Source of the DNA: Colwellia sp.
GTDB taxonomy: Bacteria; Pseudomonadota; Gammaproteobacteria; Enterobacterales; Alteromonadaceae
NCBI GenBank assembly: GCA_013215385.1
Contig: JABSOY010000011.1
Location: 62,001 to 126,000, forward strand
Reading direction: 5' to 3'
DNA: 64,000 bases
This document shows positions 33,570 to 45,265 of this stretch, in pieces. The notes beneath the pieces are model-generated. The model saw only the letters and a list, made by a program, of their open reading frames with translations. It was not told the DNA's origin and made no database searches. The position numbers and the translations under genes are program-made. How positions within the stretch are numbered: the stretch's first letter is position 1; each line of letters starts with the position of its first letter.

Positions 33570-34087
33570 TCTTCCTGATCCTACTTTATTGTTTGAGATT
33601 TCCTTGCTGGAAATTCTTTAAATGAAAAAATAGTTGATGTTATATCATAGAATTGTAACGAATAACCTTAACCCGTCTTGTAAATAGAGCCATTAAACGA
33701 TTTTTCTAATTTGATAGTAACTAATAAACCAGTTGATTACTGATAGAGTTGTTTGTTTTTAGTGGCTTTTATTTAATTAAAACAACGAATTACTTCGTAA
33801 GTTAACACTGGTCAATGTAAGTTTTTATTATAGAGTATTGTAAATATAATGTTACAAAATATTGTTGTTATTTCAGTGGTTTATTAAATTTCGCATGAAA
33901 AACCACCTGGTATGACCTGTGGTTATATCTGAGTAAAAATTGCACAAAAATATATCTCAGATAGTATCTTGATTGTTACAGAATTGTTAAATAGTTATTA
34001 TTTACTTTCACAGAACAGTTATTTGCATTGTACGTAACAGAAGATAATCAGAACTTAGGTTTTAAAATAATTATAAATGAGAGAGTT
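33570..34087. other. Intergenic region upstream of the trypsin-like protease
   Basis: These 518 bases separate two divergent genes. No coding frame is convincing, although a frame with no proper start runs into the protease gene from about 34028. Two inverted repeats occur near the protease promoter (33901-33924 and 33926-33963). A -35-like TTGATT near 33971 may belong to the protease promoter. Confidence 0.4.
33901..33963. promoter_or_regulatory. Two adjacent inverted repeats upstream of the protease gene
   Basis: AACCAC ... GTGGTT (33901-33924) is an imperfect 24-base palindrome. Next to it, TATCTGAG (33926-33933) and CTCAGATA (33956-33963) form an exact 8-base inverted repeat with 22 bases between. 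They could be operators for a dimeric regulator. No regulator gene lies nearby. Confidence 0.35.
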
Positions 34088-35821
34088 ATGAAAAATACAA
34101 ATACAAATACAAATATAAATAAGAAAAGGTTGATGGCCGCTTTTTCTCTATCTGCTTTAGCGGCGGTGAGTGCTTTGTCTACTCAAGCCGTGGCTGACAT
34201 TCCTACGGAAATTGGCATTCTTGATAGTGGAGTTACCACAAACATTGTTGGTGGCAGTCAAACAACACCACATTCACGTCCTTATCAAGTTGCTTTATTA
34301 ATGAACGGACGCCAAGGTTGTGGTGGTACGCTTATTGGGGCTCAGTGGGTCTTAACCGCAGCACATTGTTTAGATAACGCTTCAACGAGCAGTTTAACGG
34401 TTCGTGTTGGCGCGCATAGTATTCGTGCTAACGACGGAGAAACTATTCGTGTTAGCCAAATCATTACCCATCAGAACTGGCGAGGCGCAGGCGGTATACA
34501 GTCAGGTTATGATATCGGTGTGTTACGTTTGGCGTCACCAGCAAGTAGCTCTATTACACCTGCGTCTTTACCTACGCAAGCTATTGGTGATCAAATTGCC
34601 GCAGTCGGTCAATACGTGACTGTTTCGGGCTGGGGATTAACGTATAATCAAGGTAGCCCAAGCGATACATTACGTGAAGTAGCTTTACCGGTAATTTCAA
34701 ATTCAAGCTGCTCAAGCCAGTTAGGCGCAAACGTTGGTAGTGGTGTTATTTGTGGCGGTGGACCCAACGGTACATCAGCCTGTAATGGTGATAGCGGAGG
34801 ACCTTATGCTGCGCAATCAAATGGTAAGTTTTACAGCATAGGTACGGTTAGTTGGGGTAAAGCTTGTGCCGGGGCAACAGCATTCACACGGACAACCGCT
34901 TATTTAGACTGGATCGAACAGAAAACTGGCATCAAACCAGACGGCGTAACTCCTCCAGATGAATTGCCAGTGGCACGTTTTTCGACAAATGTTAACGGTA
35001 ACTTAGTCTCTTTTACAAATAGTTCAACAGATGACGGCGGTATTTTTACATCAAGCTGGATTTTTGGTGATGGTGGTTCAAGTAGTTCAGAAAACCCTAG
35101 CCATAATTATGTAAATTCAGGCAACTATACCGTTACTTTAACGGTAACAGATACATCAGGACAAACAAACTCTACCTCAGCTATGGTAACTATTGGCACG
35201 GGTGAATGTCCATCACTTACATCTGCGGATTCATTTCCAGCATGGAGCGCATCATCTAGTTATGCTCTAGGAGATAAAGTTAGTTTCCAAGGTAAAAATT
35301 ACCAAGCTATTTGGTGGTCTACAGGGGCGTCGCCTGATATTTTTTCCAATGTATGGAAAGTTATTGGCGATGATGATACCGGTCCAAATTGTCCTGACGA
35401 AAACAAGGCACCCGTTGCTAGTTTTTCTACTTCAGTTGATGAATTAACCGCTACTTTTTCTAATGCGTCTACAGATGATAAAGCGGTTGTTTCATATAGC
35501 TGGAATTTTGGTGACAATTCAACGTCTACTTCGCAAAACCCAAGTCATACTTATGCTGTTGATGGTAGCTACACAGTAACGTTAACAGTTGCTGATGCTG
35601 AAGGTTTAACAAACAGTGCCAGTAGAACGGTAACAGTAGAATTAGGCGGTGTTGATACGGGATGTGATGGTATTGCAGCTTGGTCAGCAACGACTTCTTA
35701 CGCTTTTGGCGATCAAGTGGCTTATAACGGTAAAAAGTACTCTTCTATTTGGTGGTCAACCGGTGCTCGCCCAGATGTATTCAGTAATGTTTGGACGGCT
35801 AACGGTACTTGTTCACAATAG
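34088..35821 (+). CDS. Secreted trypsin-like serine protease with PKD and chitin-binding-type domains
   Basis: The 577-residue secreted protease (start ATG at 34088 after GAGAGTT) has a signal peptide ending near STQAVA, then a peptidase S1 domain from N52-IVGG (residues 53-56) to about 285. The catalytic triad is H93 (LTAAHCL), D142 (GYDIGVLRL) and S236 (CNGDSGGPY). It is followed by PKD (about 297-370), a CBM5/12-type module (about 385-430, WSASSSYALGDKVSFQGKNY then WWSTGASPD), a second PKD and a second CBM5/12. The activation residue before IVGG is Asn, not Arg or Lys. It likely binds chitin or particles and cleaves protein there. Confidence 0.95.
   Translation: MKNTNTNTNINKKRLMAAFSLSALAAVSALSTQAVADIPTEIGILDSGVTTNIVGGSQTTPHSRPYQVALLMNGRQGCGGTLIGAQWVLTAAHCLDNASTSSLTVRVGAHSIRANDGETIRVSQIITHQNWRGAGGIQSGYDIGVLRLASPASSSITPASLPTQAIGDQIAAVGQYVTVSGWGLTYNQGSPSDTLREVALPVISNSSCSSQLGANVGSGVICGGGPNGTSACNGDSGGPYAAQSNGKFYSIGTVSWGKACAGATAFTRTTAYLDWIEQKTGIKPDGVTPPDELPVARFSTNVNGNLVSFTNSSTDDGGIFTSSWIFGDGGSSSSENPSHNYVNSGNYTVTLTVTDTSGQTNSTSAMVTIGTGECPSLTSADSFPAWSASSSYALGDKVSFQGKNYQAIWWSTGASPDIFSNVWKVIGDDDTGPNCPDENKAPVASFSTSVDELTATFSNASTDDKAVVSYSWNFGDNSTSTSQNPSHTYAVDGSYTVTLTVADAEGLTNSASRTVTVELGGVDTGCDGIAAWSATTSYAFGDQVAYNGKKYSSIWWSTGARPDVFSNVWTANGTCSQ
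34091..34121 (+). repeat. Short tandem repeat in the signal-peptide region of the protease
   Basis: About four to five near-copies of a six-base unit (AATACA) lie directly after the start codon and encode Asn-Thr repeats before the lysine-rich segment. The unit length is a multiple of three, so copy change would lengthen the N-region but keep the frame. Confidence 0.65.
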
Positions 35822-37523: not shown

Positions 37524-37560
37524 AGCGCAGACTTTAAGTAAAGTCTGCGCTTTTTTTTAA
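37524..37560. terminator. Terminator between the M18 peptidase and the lipoprotein gene
   Basis: AGCGCAGACTTTA and TAAAGTCTGCGCT make a 13-bp near-perfect stem with a tiny loop, followed by TTTTTTTT on the plus strand. The two neighbouring genes converge. Confidence 0.92.
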
Positions 37561-37568
37561 AATCAGCA

Positions 37569-39437
37569 TTAAAGTATTGACTGGAAGTCACCATTAGGAA
37601 ATAAGACACCAGGTAATCCTCTAACGGTGATTACTTCTCCAATGATTATGTCGCCAAAATATAATTCGCCAGTGTAGACTTTCCCCCTTTTTCTTAATGT
37701 TAACCAACGTCCATCAAGTCCTTTAACTTTTATATTTTTAGTGTTATTGCTTTGTGCTAAGTTTAGCTCTAATACCTGCCCTTGCATTTTTAAGGCGAAT
37801 TTCACATTGTCCAATAGCTCAAAACTTGTATTTAACCCTGACAGAGATAATCTAAAGTCGGAGCTTCCTGAAGAGGGAAGATCTAATAAGATGTCATAGA
37901 TGAAATCATTTTCATTTTGCTCTAAAGACGCTGAATATTTCGCTGCCATTATGGAAATATTGGTTGTTTGTTTTGTTGTGGTTAACAAACCTGAAAATGA
38001 AAATTGTTTTAAGATAGTAAATAATTGTCCCATTTCATTTTCAACTCTTGCCGCTTCAATGTTAATTCGTCCATCTACTGCTCCGTATTCAGTGACCATT
38101 GAAATATCAGTGATGAAGGTGAATATTGCCGTTTTAGCTTTATCTTCATTAAAAACATCGTCTACACCATCAAATTTAAGCAATAACTTATTCGTGGTGA
38201 TAGTTAAAGTGGTATTAGCACTCTTGACACTGCCGGCGATGGTTGCTTTAAAGAAGTCGCCACGTGCGGCGCTTATTCGCCATTGTGGAATGGCTAATTC
38301 TAAGTTTATTTCTGTTTCTTTATAAACGCCTGATATTACCCAGGTATAAGGAGAACCTCTGTAATTGATATCTAAACCTTGATAATTATAAAGCCCCGAG
38401 GGGGTGTCGTTAACCGGAGAGTATAGATTGAGTATTTCAGCGAGTACCTCACTGAATATGGCGATGGTTTTTTCAGAATCATCGGTAATAACAGTGGATA
38501 GCTCAGTAATTTTACTATCAACTTCATCGTTGTACTTAAGCTCTTGAATATTGATAAAGGCGAGTATATTCCTTAACTGTTTCAGCAATACTCTGTCATT
38601 TAAATCAGCTGAGTGGATAATCGTTGGGTTTTCTGCGGGACTAGCGAGTAACCTGTTTAATTTAAACTTTTCTTCGATTAAATAATCATTGCTTAGCTCG
38701 TTATTAACTGCTTGTACCGACAAGTATTGGTCAATGTTAGTAAAGTAATGAGTCACGATGTCTGATACTTCATTATCTTTAATAAAGCTGGTTAACGAGT
38801 CTTTAATTTGCGCAATTGCTTCAATAGTCTCAGAAGCACTAAATAATGAATAGTAACTTGCTTTGGCTAGGTATTGATAACGTTGAGTATGCTCTTCATC
38901 GACGTAAGTTTGATGATAATTAGGGGTAACGGATAAACTTTTTAAATGACTATTCACTTCATTTGTCGACTCTATAAGCGATAGTAATGAAAAATACACC
39001 TTATTGGTGCCTGGGCTTAAAAATACTCGAGCAGCAAAAAGGTTGTTTACTGAGAAAACTTCATCTTTATCAATAATGTCATTATCATTATTGTCTTCGT
39101 GATAGTAATCATATGAATTACCACAGCCTATTGATACTGGGCAAGTAAGCCTAGTAGAGCTTGGAATATACTCAATTTCGATAACTTGATTAGCATTTAT
39201 AGTGATCAGCTCTTCATTTAACGACGAGGTATTAAGTGACGTGATGATATCGCCACTTTGTGATCTGATTATTATTTCTCCGCTGTGGTCAAACCAAGTA
39301 GGGAGGTAAAATGATAACTGGCTATCGGCTTGAGATATTTCGAGTGTTTTCTCTTCAGCCGCACCCTCAGAGCCACCACCACATGCATTGAGTAAAGCGA
39401 TAATAAAAATTAGGGCGAGCAGATAAAAGTTTTTCAC
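37569..39437 (-). CDS. Uncharacterised outer-membrane lipoprotein, cluster gene 3
   Basis: About 622 residues from the GTG at 39437 (AAGGAAG upstream, only 10 bases after the barrel gene). The signal FYLLALIFIIALLNACGGGS has a clear lipobox; Gly at +2 permits outer-membrane sorting. I do not recognise the family. After a beta-rich N-terminus with a short acidic calcium-like loop (DNNDNDIIDKDE, about residue 125), there is a helical middle (about 180-350) and a long beta-rich C-terminus. The last 35 residues (VYTGELYFGDIIIGEVITVR ending FPNGDFQSIL) resemble the end of the large lipoprotein upstream. Probable partner of the neighbouring barrel. Confidence 0.7.
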   Translation of the reverse strand: MKNFYLLALIFIIALLNACGGGSEGAAEEKTLEISQADSQLSFYLPTWFDHSGEIIIRSQSGDIITSLNTSSLNEELITINANQVIEIEYIPSSTRLTCPVSIGCGNSYDYYHEDNNDNDIIDKDEVFSVNNLFAARVFLSPGTNKVYFSLLSLIESTNEVNSHLKSLSVTPNYHQTYVDEEHTQRYQYLAKASYYSLFSASETIEAIAQIKDSLTSFIKDNEVSDIVTHYFTNIDQYLSVQAVNNELSNDYLIEEKFKLNRLLASPAENPTIIHSADLNDRVLLKQLRNILAFINIQELKYNDEVDSKITELSTVITDDSEKTIAIFSEVLAEILNLYSPVNDTPSGLYNYQGLDINYRGSPYTWVISGVYKETEINLELAIPQWRISAARGDFFKATIAGSVKSANTTLTITTNKLLLKFDGVDDVFNEDKAKTAIFTFITDISMVTEYGAVDGRINIEAARVENEMGQLFTILKQFSFSGLLTTTKQTTNISIMAAKYSASLEQNENDFIYDILLDLPSSGSSDFRLSLSGLNTSFELLDNVKFALKMQGQVLELNLAQSNNTKNIKVKGLDGRWLTLRKRGKVYTGELYFGDIIIGEVITVRGLPGVLFPNGDFQSIL

Positions 39438-39447
39438 ATTAACTTCC

Positions 39448-40533
39448 TTAAAATGAAATAGACATATACGTGTTGAAGTGAAGGTAATAAGCTTTGTCAA
39501 AGTCTAACGAGTCAGTTTTGAAATTAATGCCAATTGATTGCGAGCCAATACCAATTTGCCATGCTTCGCTTTTATCTTCATATCCGGCCTTAACCGCCCA
39601 ATTATCAGCAAAGTGCCAGCGACCTAATATTGAAGTGAACCTGTCTTTATTTATTGAGCGAAAAGATAATTGTGTGGAAAAGTCTGGTGAAATTTGATAA
39701 TTAGCGTAACCATAATAGCGTGCTGGCATCGTTAAGGTATGGTCTTTAGTTTGATTGTTTCCTGACGTTTTTAAGCTAATCGCTGGCTCTGAAAAGACGT
39801 TGCCTGCATTGTCTTCTTGAAAGGGAATATCTTGAATATACCCTATAGCATAACCAACATCAGAGTACTTGTTTTTGTAATATAAGTCTTTCACTGATAA
39901 ACCAAGTGTTAATTGTGCTGATACTTGCCAATCAAGTGCGATATCTAAGCTTACGCCAACCCCTTTGGGTCTTTGTTGAGGGGAAAATGACTTGAATAAC
40001 CTATCCTTGGAAAAGTGATAATCTATCATAAAATTTCCCTGTGGCTTATCAGAAAAAACCTCTCCGTTGATATTACCATCTTGAAAATGTTTACTACTGA
40101 ATATCGATATTTTAGGGGTTAGTGTCACCTTTGGCTCAGCAAAGTCTATTTTATAAGAAAAGAACATGCCATGACTGGTCGCATTTTTTGCATTGAGCTT
40201 ATAAGTATAAAAACGGTTTTCAAATTTAAGGTCGTTTTTTTCGGTGTAAGTATAAAGTGCGGTATCGGGGTCGAATTCCATCACATAATCGTAGCGACTT
40301 TGTAAGCCGAAAGAAAAGTTTGAATAGTTAACTCCTATCTCGAACTGGTTGTAAGTGAAGGCACTATCTCCCTTGGTTACCGGCTGATTAAATTCATCAA
40401 TAAAAGACTTAATCGGTTGTGATTCAGTATAAAGTTCAGAATTGAGAGAGGAAAAGATAGTAAAAGGCGAGGTGGTAGCAAAAGTGTTGAAATGTATAAA
40501 TAAACACGCATATAAAGTAAGCTTTATTTTCAA
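39448..40533 (-). CDS. Predicted outer-membrane beta-barrel protein, cluster gene 2
   Basis: The 361-residue protein has a signal peptide (LTLYACLFIHFNTFATTSPF) and then alternating hydrophobic and polar residues with many aromatics, typical of beta strands (for example FTYNQFEIGVNYSNFSFGLQ). The last residue is Phe in YMSISF, the C-terminal signature recognised by the Bam complex. About 12-14 strands could be drawn, but this is a rough reading. No family is recognised. It lies between two lipoprotein genes on the same strand: 69 bases after the large one with a hairpin between, and 10 bases before the smaller one. Confidence 0.72.
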   Translation of the reverse strand: MKIKLTLYACLFIHFNTFATTSPFTIFSSLNSELYTESQPIKSFIDEFNQPVTKGDSAFTYNQFEIGVNYSNFSFGLQSRYDYVMEFDPDTALYTYTEKNDLKFENRFYTYKLNAKNATSHGMFFSYKIDFAEPKVTLTPKISIFSSKHFQDGNINGEVFSDKPQGNFMIDYHFSKDRLFKSFSPQQRPKGVGVSLDIALDWQVSAQLTLGLSVKDLYYKNKYSDVGYAIGYIQDIPFQEDNAGNVFSEPAISLKTSGNNQTKDHTLTMPARYYGYANYQISPDFSTQLSFRSINKDRFTSILGRWHFADNWAVKAGYEDKSEAWQIGIGSQSIGINFKTDSLDFDKAYYLHFNTYMSISF

Positions 40534-40568
40534 TTTACATCCTTTAATAACTATAGATTGATAAAAGT

Positions 40569-40590
40569 GCGGGAGAAAAAGTTCTCCCGC
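40569..40590 (-). terminator. Intercistronic hairpin inside the lipoprotein cluster
   Basis: GCGGGAGAA and TTCTCCCGC form a 9-bp perfect stem with a four-base loop between cluster genes 1 and 2. The following sequence on the minus strand is ACTTTTAT, a poor T-run. It could be a partial terminator that lowers expression of the later genes. Confidence 0.6.
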
Positions 40591-40602
40591 AAACAGAGTT
40601 AA

Positions 40603-43602
40603 TTACTCATCAATTGTGAAAGATAAATCTAAATATTCAACTTCTTCATCATCAATGTACGTAACAACAACGCCATTGCTCATTTCAACAAAGTCACCAT
40701 AGTTATAATCATCTAACCAGACAGAGCCCATAATGTCAGCGCCATTTTCAGCACTACCTTTCATCATGTAACTATCGCCAATCATTAATGTTACCTCAAG
40801 GGTCTCTTCATCACCCATTTCATCAATGGCAAACGTTAGTGAGAAAGAAACATCTCCAGACATACCCGCCATAACAACTTCTGCTGCAAATACATCAGGA
40901 ACTTCTGTTGTAGATAAGTCATGGTTACTTAAAGTCAAAGTACCCGTGAAGTCGGCATCACCGTCCATGATTGTTAGGGCAGTTGAAACTACCGTAGAAG
41001 TAGGTTCTTCTTCATCCAAGTCACTTAATGAAGTGAAAACACCATCAAAAGTTAATGTTGACTCACTTGAAGAAAAATCAAAAGTAGCTCCAGTGTCGCC
41101 ACTTTCGTTTAAACTAGCTGTCCATTCAAGTAATAAAGTTGTTTCACTGTCTTCATTACTTAACTCGGCAACACCTTCGAACGAACCTAGAGTTTCATGA
41201 CTTGCTGCGATTGTCATGCTTGTTTCGTTGTAGCTGTATATCCAACCGGTATGCATAGATGATGCTTTATCGGTAACGTTGCCTGTTTCTTGATTAGCTT
41301 CGTTAAGAACATCAAACATTATTTCACCAAGGTCACCTAAGGCATCACGACCAGAGGTTGTGATGATATTAATATCGGCAAATGATTGGGTAGTCGCTTT
41401 AACCATAGGAAGTTTAGCAAGAATAACCTGCTTAGCTTTAGCGTCTGCAAGCATATCAGTTAGATGACTCAAACCAGCTTCAGCTAAAACAGCTAACTCA
41501 ACTGCTGCGCTTTTCATTGCTGTTGATGAAATAACTAGAGCCTCGGCTGCTGCAATATCTGTTTCAGTTACCGCTACTGCTGCATAAGCTGTAGCGTCAA
41601 CGAGTGCTATGTTAGCATAGGTTGAATAATCATCAGTCATTGCAATGAAGGCGAACTTATCAGCAAGTGCTTGTTCAGTGGCCATAACATAGGCCGCTGC
41701 AGATTCAACACTTTGAGGATCATTTAACGCCATTGCATCTTCATGACTCGTAGTTGCTGTTGTTTGCGCGGCTGTTGCCATACCTTGCTTAGTCATTGCC
41801 ATGTCATTTGACGACTCTGCTTGAGCTTTGGCTGCAGGTACGACTGCATCAAACTCAATAAGTTTCGCTTTTGCATCAGCTAATAAGTCTTGAGCTTCTT
41901 TATGTATACCATCATCGCCATTAACCTGCATTGCTTCTGAATGCGCTAACAAAGCTGTATCTTTAGCACCATCAAGTAAACTTTGATATTCAGAACTTGC
42001 ACTGACTAAGAATGTAGCCGTATCTACCCAAGCACTAGCGTTATGGTCATAAGTATTTGCTTTATTGCCTAAGACATTGATATCGTCTCTATTAAAAACC
42101 ATATTATAAGCAGCAAATGCTGATTCATAATAGGCAACCGCTGTATCAACATCTGCAACACTTGCCGCTAATGCAGAAGAAGCGGTAATTGCCGCGTTTG
42201 CAGCGTCAATTTCATCAGCAAGGTTTGCGATGTTAGTATCTAACAATGCCAGCTCTGTGGTAACTTCTGCAGCTAAAGATGAGTATAAGTCATCACCGAT
42301 AGTACATTCATCGCCATTACAGCCTAGTTCTTCAACTAAAGCTACAATTTCAATGGCTTGGTTAAAGAGTTCTTGTCGCGTGATTGCGCCACTTGCCACG
42401 GCCATTTCAACAGATGCAGTTATTGAGGCTATACTTCCTGCATCAACACCTAGTGCTTCTAATGTCGTAGTATCACCGGTAACAATCGCCACATAAATAG
42501 CAGCAATCGTTTTAACTCTTGCTTGAATAGCGTCAAATAATGCCGATGCTTTAGCTGAAGAAGCTCTAGATGACAGTGCTTTTCCAGGAGCTGCAGCCGG
42601 ATTTGCTGCAGCTGCACTTAAACTTCCATCAGACACTGAACTTGCTAATTCTGCGATTATTTCTGCTAGCGAGCCATTGTTACCTGCTGCGGCTACAGTT
42701 TGTAAACTTGTGGCAAATTGAGCAAGAGCCGTATTACCGGTATTTAAGCTAGTATCACCGCCAATATCGCTAAGGTCGAAACCAACACCAGTAGATATAT
42801 CTAAAAGTAAACTACCGTTTTCAATAACACCATCTGCTCCAAACAACTGCATTACAGTTTGCACTGAAGCATTTGATATCGCTTGTTGGCTAATAGGGGC
42901 GGTAGCTAAATTGTCTTGTAAAATTGTCGCGACAATTTCACTAAATACCGTTACATTTGCGGTGTAGTTTCTTGACATATCAGGGGTGTCTGATGCCGAA
43001 ATGTATTTTATTGTGGTTAACGTTAAATCTTCTTTATACCATTCGCCAAATTCGATTGCTAAATCATCGTCATTAGGCACAACGGTTGATACTGCGTCTG
43101 CGTCTGCATACACGCCACAACCGGTATAAGAGTCACATCGTAGCCATTGATTTTCTACCGATGAATCGCTTGATACACTGATAAGAACAGCACCAGAAAA
43201 GCTGTCTTCTAGATAAACACTGAGGAGTCCATTATCATCTGTTGGTGGATTTTCAGGGTTTGCTGCAAGTACTTTAGCAGCAATCAATGCGTCGAGTTGA
43301 GTATCGGAAGTGCCCGCAGGCGCTGATACTGTGTAACTTTCAGCCTCAGCAGAACCAGCTACACGAAAACTAATGGGGGTGGTAACGCCTGTAATTGCAT
43401 CAATTTGTTGAACCGAGATGGTTGCATTAGCCATTGTACCTTTAACAGCCATTCCAGTTAAACCAATATTAAATGTAGCGGTTCCTGTTTTTTTCTCTGG
43501 AGCTTCTACTTTTACTGGTGGGACCGAAGTACTACCGCTATCACAGCCTGCAGTAAACAATGTTACTGAAATTAAAGATGACATAATCACATTTTTTTTC
43601 AT
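40603..43602 (-). CDS. Large Ala-rich lipoprotein of unknown function, cluster gene 1
   Basis: A protein of about 999 residues, start ATG at 43602 after AAGGAATAT. The lipobox is LFTAGC with Cys 20. Asp at +2 is the residue that in E. coli retains lipoproteins in the inner membrane. The mature N-terminus (about 45-290) is beta-rich and includes MAVKGTMANATISVQQI, followed by a long Ala/Ser/Asp-rich helical middle (about 300-770) and an acidic beta-rich C-terminal domain. No family is recognised. The two short disulfide candidates CDSYTGC and CNGDEC look extracytoplasmic. The codon use is ordinary for the window. It is the first gene of a three-gene unit. Confidence 0.72.
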   Translation of the reverse strand: MKKNVIMSSLISVTLFTAGCDSGSTSVPPVKVEAPEKKTGTATFNIGLTGMAVKGTMANATISVQQIDAITGVTTPISFRVAGSAEAESYTVSAPAGTSDTQLDALIAAKVLAANPENPPTDDNGLLSVYLEDSFSGAVLISVSSDSSVENQWLRCDSYTGCGVYADADAVSTVVPNDDDLAIEFGEWYKEDLTLTTIKYISASDTPDMSRNYTANVTVFSEIVATILQDNLATAPISQQAISNASVQTVMQLFGADGVIENGSLLLDISTGVGFDLSDIGGDTSLNTGNTALAQFATSLQTVAAAGNNGSLAEIIAELASSVSDGSLSAAAANPAAAPGKALSSRASSAKASALFDAIQARVKTIAAIYVAIVTGDTTTLEALGVDAGSIASITASVEMAVASGAITRQELFNQAIEIVALVEELGCNGDECTIGDDLYSSLAAEVTTELALLDTNIANLADEIDAANAAITASSALAASVADVDTAVAYYESAFAAYNMVFNRDDINVLGNKANTYDHNASAWVDTATFLVSASSEYQSLLDGAKDTALLAHSEAMQVNGDDGIHKEAQDLLADAKAKLIEFDAVVPAAKAQAESSNDMAMTKQGMATAAQTTATTSHEDAMALNDPQSVESAAAYVMATEQALADKFAFIAMTDDYSTYANIALVDATAYAAVAVTETDIAAAEALVISSTAMKSAAVELAVLAEAGLSHLTDMLADAKAKQVILAKLPMVKATTQSFADINIITTSGRDALGDLGEIMFDVLNEANQETGNVTDKASSMHTGWIYSYNETSMTIAASHETLGSFEGVAELSNEDSETTLLLEWTASLNESGDTGATFDFSSSESTLTFDGVFTSLSDLDEEEPTSTVVSTALTIMDGDADFTGTLTLSNHDLSTTEVPDVFAAEVVMAGMSGDVSFSLTFAIDEMGDEETLEVTLMIGDSYMMKGSAENGADIMGSVWLDDYNYGDFVEMSNGVVVTYIDDEEVEYLDLSFTIDE

Positions 43603-43885
43603 TATATATTCCTTCAAAATTAATGATATAAATAAACTCACCGTAAGAGTAGAACAAAAATAAGTACTTGGAAAGAAAAAAATGTAGGTTATTTTATGAA
43701 TGAATTTAGAGTAAAAACTTGTTATTTATCAAAAAAATCGAAGTGGCGATATTTTAATCGATCCAGTCAATTCTTTATTATTAGTAGAATTTAATTGCCG
43801 TTTTATTTTAGTTATGCTTTTAGTCTCGGGACCATTTATTCTATAATCTCATCACTGCATTTTTAATTTAGATAAAAATTTTATT

Positions 43886-45265
43886 ATGATGAAAAAGTTA
43901 TTTTCAATAAATAAACACGCTACAATTTCTTTCTCCTGTTTAGAACATAAAAAATCAGTTTTATTGTTATCAATGTTAGTCAGTCTACAAGGCTGCGGTG
44001 GTGGCAGTAGTGGCTCTGATCCTACCCCCACAACACCTAAAAGTTATGCATTCTCATTAACGTCGACTCTGACCAATAAATGTGGCGAACAATTGCCATT
44101 TGTTGATGTTGAGCTTTTTCTGCAAGCTGAAGATTGGTCAACGATTGAAAAATATACGCCTAATGAAAATGGTGTGTTTAGTTTTACAACTGAAAATGAA
44201 AACATAAATTATACCCTTGCCGCTAAAAACCAAAAAGGTAATAAAGCAGAGGGATATCAGCTTATTAGTTTTTATCAAGCAAGAACAACAACACCTGCTA
44301 TCTATCAAGCACAACACGATGAAATAATCGATAATACAAATTGTGAATGTATTATAAAAAATGTTTCTCTTGAACATGCCACAATCAGTAATATTAATGA
44401 GGTAACAAGTTCTGCTCCTTTTGTTGATGTAACTTTTATTGATAACCGAAATAGCACTTATAATAACGTCGAAATTTGCCGTATAGCAGGGAGTAATTGG
44501 CCGCTTCATTCTTTTTCTCTTGTAGGAGAAGATAACAATAACGAAGTAATAGGGCGTGGAGTATTTATTGAAGAGGATTTTGGTAATGAAACATGGCAAG
44601 CTTTTGCATCTGAATTTTCAACCATGGAATATTTAGAAGATAATCATCAAGCCTTTTCTCATGAGCAAACTATCAAGGGTCGTCGCCACTTTAAGATTGA
44701 TGTGGCAGCAAGTGACACCAGTATTCAAATATTTAGATCGCATGATATTGTCGAACTATTTCGTTCTTCAGCACAAAATATTTTCGAAGAAAGACCAAAC
44801 CTTAATGATTATTTAAGAACATCGAGTAAGCAGGTAATCACTTCTGAAGTTTATACAACTAGCTTAAAAGTTGCAGCTGAAACTAGAGTTCCTGATGCAT
44901 TTAAAGATGATCAAAGTAGGAATGAATTAGCGATAAAGTCAGATGGTAGTTATAATTTTACTTCCTTAGCAGATTTCCCAATGGCTATTGTTAAAATAGA
45001 CTTCCAAGCTATTAATCCAACCACCAATAGTATTATGCCCGTTAGCTGGATAACCTACGGACCCATTGCAGGGGTTGTTCCTATTAAAGCAACATTACTG
45101 GGCTATGAGCATTTAATTGATGAACAAAGCCACTTTCGAATTGATAATGAGGTTATCCAAAGTGCAAGTTCAAATACCTACAATGATTATATTAGTTTTT
45201 ATCAGAACAACTTTGATATGACGTTTGAAGCTAATTTGAACAGCTACCAAATAATTACAGATTAA
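43886..45265 (+). CDS. Uncharacterised lipoprotein divergent to the cluster
   Basis: A 459-residue protein with a long N-region and a lipobox at SLQGCGGGSS (Gly at +2, outer-membrane type). The linker SGSDPTPTTPK leads into a domain with VDVELFLQ and YTPNENGVFSF that looks like a carboxypeptidase regulatory-like fold, then a region with a Cys-x-Cys (NCECI) and several beta-rich segments. I do not recognise the family. It is divergent from the large lipoprotein with 283 bases between, so one control region may serve both. A terminator follows. Confidence 0.7.
   Translation: MMKKLFSINKHATISFSCLEHKKSVLLLSMLVSLQGCGGGSSGSDPTPTTPKSYAFSLTSTLTNKCGEQLPFVDVELFLQAEDWSTIEKYTPNENGVFSFTTENENINYTLAAKNQKGNKAEGYQLISFYQARTTTPAIYQAQHDEIIDNTNCECIIKNVSLEHATISNINEVTSSAPFVDVTFIDNRNSTYNNVEICRIAGSNWPLHSFSLVGEDNNNEVIGRGVFIEEDFGNETWQAFASEFSTMEYLEDNHQAFSHEQTIKGRRHFKIDVAASDTSIQIFRSHDIVELFRSSAQNIFEERPNLNDYLRTSSKQVITSEVYTTSLKVAAETRVPDAFKDDQSRNELAIKSDGSYNFTSLADFPMAIVKIDFQAINPTTNSIMPVSWITYGPIAGVVPIKATLLGYEHLIDEQSHFRIDNEVIQSASSNTYNDYISFYQNNFDMTFEANLNSYQIITD

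What the first reader, a model, noticed from the sequence alone, without database searches (positions are those of the whole stretch)
37569..45265. Unrecognised lipoprotein-barrel-lipoprotein cluster with a divergent lipoprotein
Seen directly: three genes on the minus strand encode a large Ala-rich lipoprotein (40603-43602), a signal-bearing protein with beta-barrel character ending in Phe (39448-40533) and a second lipoprotein (37569-39437), with a fourth lipoprotein gene divergent at 43886. I recognise none of the four. The tight spacing (10 bases between genes 2 and 3) suggests joint function. Inference: an outer-membrane barrel flanked by two surface-type lipoproteins could be an export, adhesion or nutrient-uptake device.
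Basis: partly seen in the sequence, partly recalled or inferred. Interest (0 to 1): 0.75.

Follow-up and report, generated by a model that had tools for sequence, protein, structure and literature searches.

The report
Outer-membrane barrel with duplicated partner lipoproteins
A small outer-membrane barrel protein is nearly always encoded right after a large lipoprotein in scattered gammaproteobacteria, and in this window a second, related lipoprotein follows it; the set may be an undescribed way of holding or displaying large proteins at the cell surface.

Summary
The divergent fourth lipoprotein is a neighbour, not a part.

The unit is A-B. In 36 of 36 barrel loci of the family search and 18 of 20 wider loci the barrel directly follows a large same-strand gene, nearly always a lipoprotein. 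C is found in one barrel clade only. Profiles show that A and C belong to one lipoprotein family. Two-gene A proteins end in a conserved tail (Y-x-D-G-x-x-E-S/T-L); three-gene A lacks it and C carries it, in variant form in this window. A hairpin sits between A and B in 75 of 81 junctions, against 0 of 36 B-C and 17 of 145 other close gene pairs.

The barrel model weakly resembles FadL-type barrels. A few A proteins carry collagen, cadherin or surface-Ig inserts. Best reading: a dedicated barrel that docks its partner lipoprotein's conserved end and displays or anchors it at the surface, with A in excess. Docking, topology and function are inferred. Layout resembles Slam/T11SS, membership does not.

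The parts
40603..43602 (-). gene A: large lipoprotein, 999 aa; lipobox TAGC with Asp at +2
   Evidence: homologues directly before the barrel in 36 of 36 loci
43033..43473 (-). conserved N-terminal domain of A (G-x-A-V-K-G-T motif to the FGEWY stretch)
   Evidence: profile match two-gene A vs three-gene A 99.6%, two-gene A vs C 91.9%; coordinates approximate
43114..43137 (-). CD-x3-GCG motif (two Cys) of A
   Evidence: C156, D157, C162, G163 invariant in 15 rows
40568..40591 (-). hairpin between A and B (10 pairs, loop 4, then CTTTTATC), terminator-like
   Evidence: a hairpin of this kind in 75 of 81 A-B junctions
39448..40533 (-). gene B: signal-bearing outer-membrane barrel, 361 aa, TTG start
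   Evidence: AlphaFold pLDDT 84, pTM 0.80; outer-membrane barrels as Foldseek matches
37569..39437 (-). gene C: second lipoprotein, 622 aa, GTG start, 10 bases after B
   Evidence: AlphaFold pLDDT 79
39120..39143 (-). CP-x3-GCG motif of C, counterpart of A's CD-x3-GCG
   Evidence: C99, P100, G104, C105, G106 invariant in 29 rows
39060..39095 (-). EF-hand-like 12-residue loop of C (D-x-N-x-N-x-x-I-D-x-x-E)
   Evidence: D115, N119, D123, E126 invariant and N117, I122 nearly so in 29 rows; 35 of 36 C fit the pattern, one not scored
37572..37907 (-). C-terminal domain of C, homologous to the C-terminus of two-gene A; ends PGVLFPNGDFQSIL
   Evidence: hhalign 97.3%, 112 columns to the last residue; coordinates approximate
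37524..37551 (+). hairpin with T-run between C and the convergent aminopeptidase gene, probable terminator

Best explanation
A-B(-C) is a conserved module made of one outer-membrane barrel and its own partner lipoprotein. B looks like a FadL-type barrel without a periplasmic domain. The partner lipoprotein has a conserved N-terminal domain near the lipid anchor, a variable middle and a conserved C-terminal beta domain whose tail, in the loci read, is seen only in B's partner. I propose that the C-terminal domain docks on B, and that B thereby moves, anchors or displays the lipoprotein at the cell surface. In the clade of this window the lipoprotein gene was probably duplicated to both sides of B: C kept the docking end, while A kept the N-terminal domain and has a long Ala-rich middle and an altered tail. 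A hairpin after A lowers read-through, so A is made in excess of B and C, as for a cargo and its transporter. Shown: gene order, homology, where the tail sits, the single clade and the hairpin. Inferred: docking, surface exposure, duplication and its direction, expression ratio.
For: Barrel directly preceded by a same-strand gene of 733-1332 aa in 36 of 36 loci and by an A-like gene in 18 of 20 wider loci; lipobox in 44 of 46 two-gene A, 36 of 36 three-gene A, 36 of 36 C. Tail, strict form: two-gene A 29 of 46, three-gene A 0 of 36, C 32 of 36, barrels 0 of 84, other ORFs 0 of 364; loose form: 43, 0, 32, 1 and 0. Of 45 profile pairs of slices, only A-N/A-N, A-N/C-N, A-C/C-C and weakly A-C/A-C stand out, apart from overlapping slices. 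Sampled barrels of three-gene loci form one clade, 100/98. Hairpin in 75 of 81 A-B junctions vs 0 of 36 B-C and 17 of 145 other close pairs. An EF-hand-like loop after the GCG motif is shared by C (35 of 36) and three-gene A (12 of 36 strict, 33 of 36 relaxed) and in neither form by the 35 two-gene A scored. Surface-type inserts in 4 A proteins. FadL homologues that partner surface or exported proteins are known in Bacteroidota (passages of PMC12578637).
Against: No experiment or co-fold shows contact between B and A or C. Two of 20 wider loci (L134, L135, one genus) have the barrel without A beside it. The strict tail in C is found only in the 32 Pseudoalteromonas proteins; the other four C, this window's included, have variants without the Glu (FQSIL, FHSIF, FLSLF, FISVF). 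The tail may be a structural hairpin and not a docking tag. A of this window has Asp at +2, the only case among 80 scored A proteins; in E. coli that favours the inner membrane (recalled). The A N-terminal domain also occurs in lipoproteins without a barrel homologue beside them. The Foldseek superpositions are poor (rmsd 8.7 and more, TM at most 0.47 in the rows shown), and the best hits include transport channels. The direct A-C comparison within three-gene loci fails at the C-terminus (2.3%); the link runs through two-gene A.
Confidence: 0.42

Rival explanations
1. B is a FadL-type uptake channel for a hydrophobic or other small substrate, and A and C are substrate-capturing lipoproteins.
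For: Foldseek hits include AlgE, TodX, TbuX and FadL with E about 1e-6 to 1e-5. Loci are patchy. C has a long beta sheet that could bind ligand. A lipoprotein with the A-type N-terminal domain in another genome follows a protein that by eye looks like a TonB-dependent receptor.
Against: No FadL/Toluene_X family match by sequence. In the model the first strand starts at residue 24, soon after the signal, leaving no room before it for a FadL-type hatch. By eye I saw no recurrent uptake or catabolic gene beside the loci beyond flanks shared by close relatives, but did not test this.
Confidence: 0.25
2. A and C face the periplasm and assemble or plug B, as LptE does for LptD; B is the working part.
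For: Conserved lipoprotein-barrel pairing; the C-terminal domain and tail are constant while the middle varies. The Asp at +2 of this A.
Against: A is about 490-1330 aa with collagen, cadherin or surface-Ig inserts in 4 cases, odd for an assembly factor; A, not B, lies before the hairpin, so the presumed helper would be the more abundant product if the hairpin terminates.
Confidence: 0.18
3. A and C reach the surface by another route (type II secretion or BAM) and B is a surface receptor or anchor that they bind afterwards.
For: Lipoprotein transport to the surface by T2SS is reported in Acinetobacter (PMC12802150, title and abstract start in the listing). FadL-like PorV is a proposed cargo-binding shuttle in T9SS (passage).
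Against: Nothing tested here separates this from the best explanation; no T2SS gene was looked for.
Confidence: 0.12
4. The genes are neighbours without joint function.
For: L134 and L135 have B without A beside it.
Against: Order kept in 36 of 36 and 18 of 20 loci, with flanking genes that by eye differ between clades.
Confidence: 0.03

Closest known systems
Slam / type XI secretion (DUF560 barrel with TbpB-type lipoproteins)
   Same: One outer-membrane barrel encoded beside its own lipoprotein; a C-terminal beta domain as the shared part of the partners (passages of PMC8406197).
   Different: No DUF560 match, no TPR domain in the model, no TbpBBD match in the partner; partner gene first with a hairpin between; partner paralogue on the other side in one clade.
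FadL/OmpP1/TodX barrels, including BamG of Bacteroidota BAM and PorV of T9SS
   Same: Among the top Foldseek matches; BamG sits with surface lipoproteins and PorV is a proposed cargo shuttle (passages of PMC12578637).
   Different: No sequence family match; no hatch before strand 1 in the model; low TM-scores; encoded with A and C.
DUF5723 (Pfam PF18990)
   Same: Sub-threshold match over residues 55-331 of B.
   Different: 23.7 bits against a cut-off of 26.8; only 2 of 25 family members match at E 0.01. Family of unknown function.
LptD-LptE type barrel with lipoprotein plug (recalled)
   Same: Barrel and lipoprotein as a fixed pair.
   Different: B is a small barrel without a periplasmic domain; A and C are far larger than LptE.

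Membership tests
Slam / T11SS | DUF560 barrel domain | tested here: not met
   no such Pfam match in B or in the 25 barrels of alignment A1
Slam / T11SS | N-terminal periplasmic TPR domain | tested here: not met
   mature B is about 340 aa, strands from residue 24 to 360 in the model
Slam / T11SS | partner with TbpBBD beta-barrel domain | tested here: not met
   no match in A and C of the window, 27 two-gene A or 29 C
Slam / T11SS | barrel needed for surface display of the partner | not testable with these tools
   needs a deletion or a reconstituted strain
FadL/OmpP1/TodX | FadL/Toluene_X sequence family | tested here: not met
   no such match
FadL/OmpP1/TodX | 14-stranded FadL fold | tested here: inconclusive
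   Foldseek probability 1.00 but query TM 0.26-0.47 for FadL-type hits shown; the model lists 16 strands of 7 or more residues
FadL/OmpP1/TodX | N-terminal hatch domain (recalled) | tested here: not met
   first strand at residues 24-36 in the model, just after the signal
DUF5723 | score above Pfam's cut-off | tested here: not met
   23.7 vs 26.8 bits; 2 of 25 members at E 0.01
bacterial lipoprotein | signal peptide with lipobox Cys | tested here: met
   two-gene A 44 of 46, three-gene A 36 of 36, C 36 of 36 by pattern
EF-hand-type calcium site | 12-residue loop with ligands at 1, 3, 5, 9, 12 | tested here: inconclusive
   pattern fits 35 of 36 C and 12 of 36 three-gene A, 0 of 35 scored two-gene A; no Pfam EF-hand match in 29 C; binding not tested

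The most novel reading that the evidence does not exclude
A lipoprotein surface-display system distinct from Slam: a bare FadL-like barrel recognises a conserved C-terminal domain ending in an E-S/T-L type tail, and in one clade the partner gene has been duplicated so that one copy keeps the address tail and the other the bulk of the surface structure.
Probability: 0.33. Interest if true: 0.8.

Novelty: new variant of a known kind. Interest (0 to 1): 0.6.

Why it matters
How large lipoproteins get to the surface of gammaproteobacteria is known for few systems. Here is a compact, recurrent barrel-lipoprotein pair with a tail that sits on one or the other paralogue and a conserved hairpin that may set the dose, so the questions of what addresses a lipoprotein to a barrel, and in which ratio, can be tested with two or three genes.

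Tried and rejected
Fourth lipoprotein (43886): rejected as a member. Homologues in 35 of 196 genomes; in the same-genus genomes G025, G101 and G150 they are on another contig or about 270 kb from the barrel.

Barrel-lipoprotein fusion: the genome search showed an open frame of 1186 aa at G487. Reading L117 showed two separate, slightly overlapping ORFs, so no fusion.

A as the N-terminal piece of a simply split two-gene lipoprotein: less likely than duplication, because three-gene A still carries a weak, altered copy of the C-terminal domain (48.9%) and C has its own lipobox and N-terminal motif.

BAM end signal at the C-terminus of A or C: by reading, the tail does not alternate as an outer-membrane-protein end signal does (pattern recalled, not scored).

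Fold search of C: no PDB match at E 0.001, best 0.042 to an OspA mutant. Of the libraries, NCBIfam, PHROGs and PADLOC gave nothing usable. Paper searches for DUF5723, for Alteromonadales or Pseudoalteromonas barrel-lipoprotein sets and for Slam-like systems showed no description of this module in their listings. The library is limited, so this is no proof of absence.

Limits of the counts. The tail, hairpin and loop patterns were written after looking at the sequences; the background counts are the guard, and the background ORFs and gene pairs come from the first 34 loci and the window only. The three-gene rows are mostly Pseudoalteromonas and not independent. Left out of the tail count: L138 (barrel broken by a stop), the genes before L134 and L135 (not A), and rows with identical last 300 residues. 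In the loop count 11 of 46 two-gene A and 1 of 36 C gave no Cys motif by the pattern and were not scored. The tree used 14 of 36 different three-gene barrels and 48 others, two of which (L134, L135) have no A beside them. The 34 named loci were found with a query made of three-gene barrels, so 34 of 34 three-gene there is partly selection. In the order, class and phylum searches not all first-look candidates were scored, so those counts are lower bounds. Of the 23 non-own genomes that match I fetched regions from 19; G286, G350 and two weak partial hits (G475, G667) were not followed.
Full report
Observation. The window lies at G000:C4:62001-126000. Its nearest named relative for this locus is Colwellia sp. 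MB3u-41 (barrel 80% identical). Genes A, B and C are on the minus strand at the stated places, with 69 bases between A and B and 10 between B and C. A fourth lipoprotein gene starts at 43886 on the plus strand. A, B and C have no match above a curated cut-off in Pfam or NCBIfam, none in PADLOC, and no close PDB sequence. B has a sub-threshold DUF5723 match.

Conservation. With B as query, 33 of 196 genomes of the same family match, the own genome counted. Reading 36 barrel loci, the barrel is directly preceded by a same-strand gene of 733-1332 aa in 36 of 36. A third gene of the C type follows in 7 of 36. With an alignment of 25 barrels (A1), 9 of 247 genomes of the order, 16 of 274 of the class and 2 of 349 of the phylum match, the own genome counted each time; these are lower bounds, since not all first-look candidates were scored. 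I fetched 20 regions from 19 of these genomes; an A-like gene precedes the barrel in 18 of 20, in one of them (L138) beside a barrel broken by a stop. The two exceptions, L134 and L135, are one genus. A scan of named genomes with three-gene barrels gave 34 loci (32 Pseudoalteromonas, 1 Colwellia, 1 Algicola), all A-B-C. The module is therefore recurrent but patchy in Gammaproteobacteria.

One lipoprotein family on both sides. I split A of two-gene loci (46 different), A of three-gene loci (36) and C (36) into N-terminal, middle and C-terminal slices and compared all profile pairs with each other and with the barrel's C-terminal slice (45 pairs). Slices of different proteins that match: two-gene A and three-gene A at the N-terminus (99.6%), two-gene A and C at the N-terminus (91.9%), three-gene A and C at the N-terminus (89.2%), two-gene A and C at the C-terminus (97.3%, 112 columns to the last residue) and weakly two-gene and three-gene A at the C-terminus (48.9%). 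Three further high scores are overlapping slices of one protein set. Every other pair is at 2.7% or less, three-gene A against C at the C-terminus included (2.3%). The N-terminal match holds two conserved Cys (CD-x3-GCG in A, CP-x3-GCG in C). So C is a relative of A, best seen through two-gene A.

A shared loop. After the GCG motif, an EF-hand-like 12-residue loop fits 35 of 36 C (one not scored), 12 of 36 three-gene A (33 of 36 in a relaxed form) and, in neither form, any of the 35 two-gene A scored. By eye three two-gene A from other families (L125, L127, L129) have a longer stretch there that comes near it. The shared loop favours a duplication of A within or near the three-gene clade; the C of this window fits it and the A of this window only in relaxed form at most.

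The tail. Two-gene A ends in a pattern like I-V-x-Y-x-D-G-x-x-E-S/T-L. In its strict form it is in 29 of 46 two-gene A, 0 of 36 three-gene A, 32 of 36 C, 0 of 84 barrels and 0 of 364 other ORFs of the first loci; in a loose form in 43, 0, 32, 1 and 0. The 32 C with the strict form are all Pseudoalteromonas. The other four C (this window, Colwellia MB3u-41, Algicola, G022) have variants without the Glu, here FPNGDFQSIL. Three-gene A mostly ends in a related but different way, with a V-x-Y-I-D stretch followed by Y-T-D or Y-L-D and a few more residues. In these loci the tail stays with the lipoprotein that carries the canonical C-terminal domain.

Tree. In a maximum-likelihood tree of 62 barrels, 14 three-gene rows (of 36 different ones) lie on one side of one branch (100/98) and the 48 others on the other side; shuffled labels need 12.7 changes on average. 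Two of the 48 (L134, L135) have no A beside them. The drawn root is a midpoint. That two genes came first is likely from breadth, but the root is not tested.

Hairpin. The stretch after A holds a stem of at least 7 pairs with at least 4 G-C pairs in 75 of 81 different A-B junctions, 57 of them with a T-run. Before removal of identical stretches it was 43 of 46 two-gene and 33 of 36 three-gene loci. B-C junctions: 0 of 36. Other same-strand pairs with similar gaps: 17 of 145 (7 with T-run). Ends of genes that face an opposite-strand gene: 36 of 102 (23). Simple shuffles of the A-B stretches: 1.4 of 81. In this window it is at 40568-40591. A partial terminator after A, giving more A than B, is the simplest reading; a full terminator with a separate promoter for B is not excluded.

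Structure. The AlphaFold model of B (30-row alignment) has mean pLDDT 84.1 and pTM 0.80, with strands from residue 24 to 360, 16 of them of 7 or more residues, and no separate domain. Foldseek's best PDB match is a chain of the Flavobacterium johnsoniae BAM complex (E 5e-7, TM 0.34), followed by AlgE, TodX, TbuX and FadL (E about 1e-6 to 1e-5, query TM 0.26-0.47, rmsd 8.7 and more). Passages of PMC12578637 say that the Bacteroidota BAM holds a FadL homologue, BamG, that binds a surface lipoprotein, and that PorV of T9SS is also a FadL homologue. That the matched chain 9n2d_B is BamG is my inference. The model of C (29-row alignment, pLDDT 79.2, pTM 0.74) has a first beta part (38-148), a helical part (151-338) and a long beta sheet (348-620) without a PDB match at E 0.001. 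A was not modelled.

Surface signs. Four two-gene A proteins carry modules typical of surface proteins: a surface-Ig domain at 40-109 (L054), DUF7151 and collagen repeats at 49-124 (L132; the collagen score is just under Pfam's cut-off), Big_9/cadherin repeats with the best stretch at 418-490 (L060) and 370-451 (L064). In an alignment of 27 two-gene A, conservation is highest in the N-terminal part and in the last 23 well-filled columns. This is the pattern of a cargo with constant ends, but it is indirect. Against it, this window's A has Asp at +2, alone among 80 scored A proteins.

How it most likely works. A and, in this clade, C are lipidated, taken to the outer membrane and engaged by B through the C-terminal beta domain, with the tail as a likely contact, so that the large N-terminal and middle parts stand on the surface as adhesin or protective layer. 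Engagement and topology are inferred. The FadL-like channel reading and the periplasmic-helper reading remain open.

Comparison. It works like Slam/T11SS in layout (passages of PMC8406197 and PMC9090332) but lacks DUF560, TPR and TbpBBD matches, so it is not a member. It is FadL-like by fold only, and weakly. No description was seen in the listings.

Noticed in passing
window 43886-45265: Divergent lipoprotein belongs to its own family, with homologues in 35 of 196 family genomes and a second, weak copy in this genome (G000:C3:83937).
   Followed up: partly
window 43540-43545: Gene A of this window has Asp right after the lipid-bearing Cys, unlike the other 79 scored A proteins; in E. coli this would favour the inner membrane (recalled).
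   Followed up: no
L134 and L135: Barrel homologues without A beside them, after a ligase-like gene and before a UbiX-like gene (names by eye only).
   Followed up: partly
L138: Barrel split by an in-frame stop with a shortened A before it: probably a decaying copy of the pair.
   Followed up: no
L057: Two A-B units in tandem in one genome of the same genus.
   Followed up: no
L153:7894-10623: A lipoprotein with the A-type N-terminal domain but no barrel homologue beside it; it follows a 988 aa protein that looks by eye like a TonB-dependent receptor.
   Followed up: no
window 34028-35821: Secreted trypsin-like protease with two PKD and two CBM5/12 stretches.
   Followed up: no
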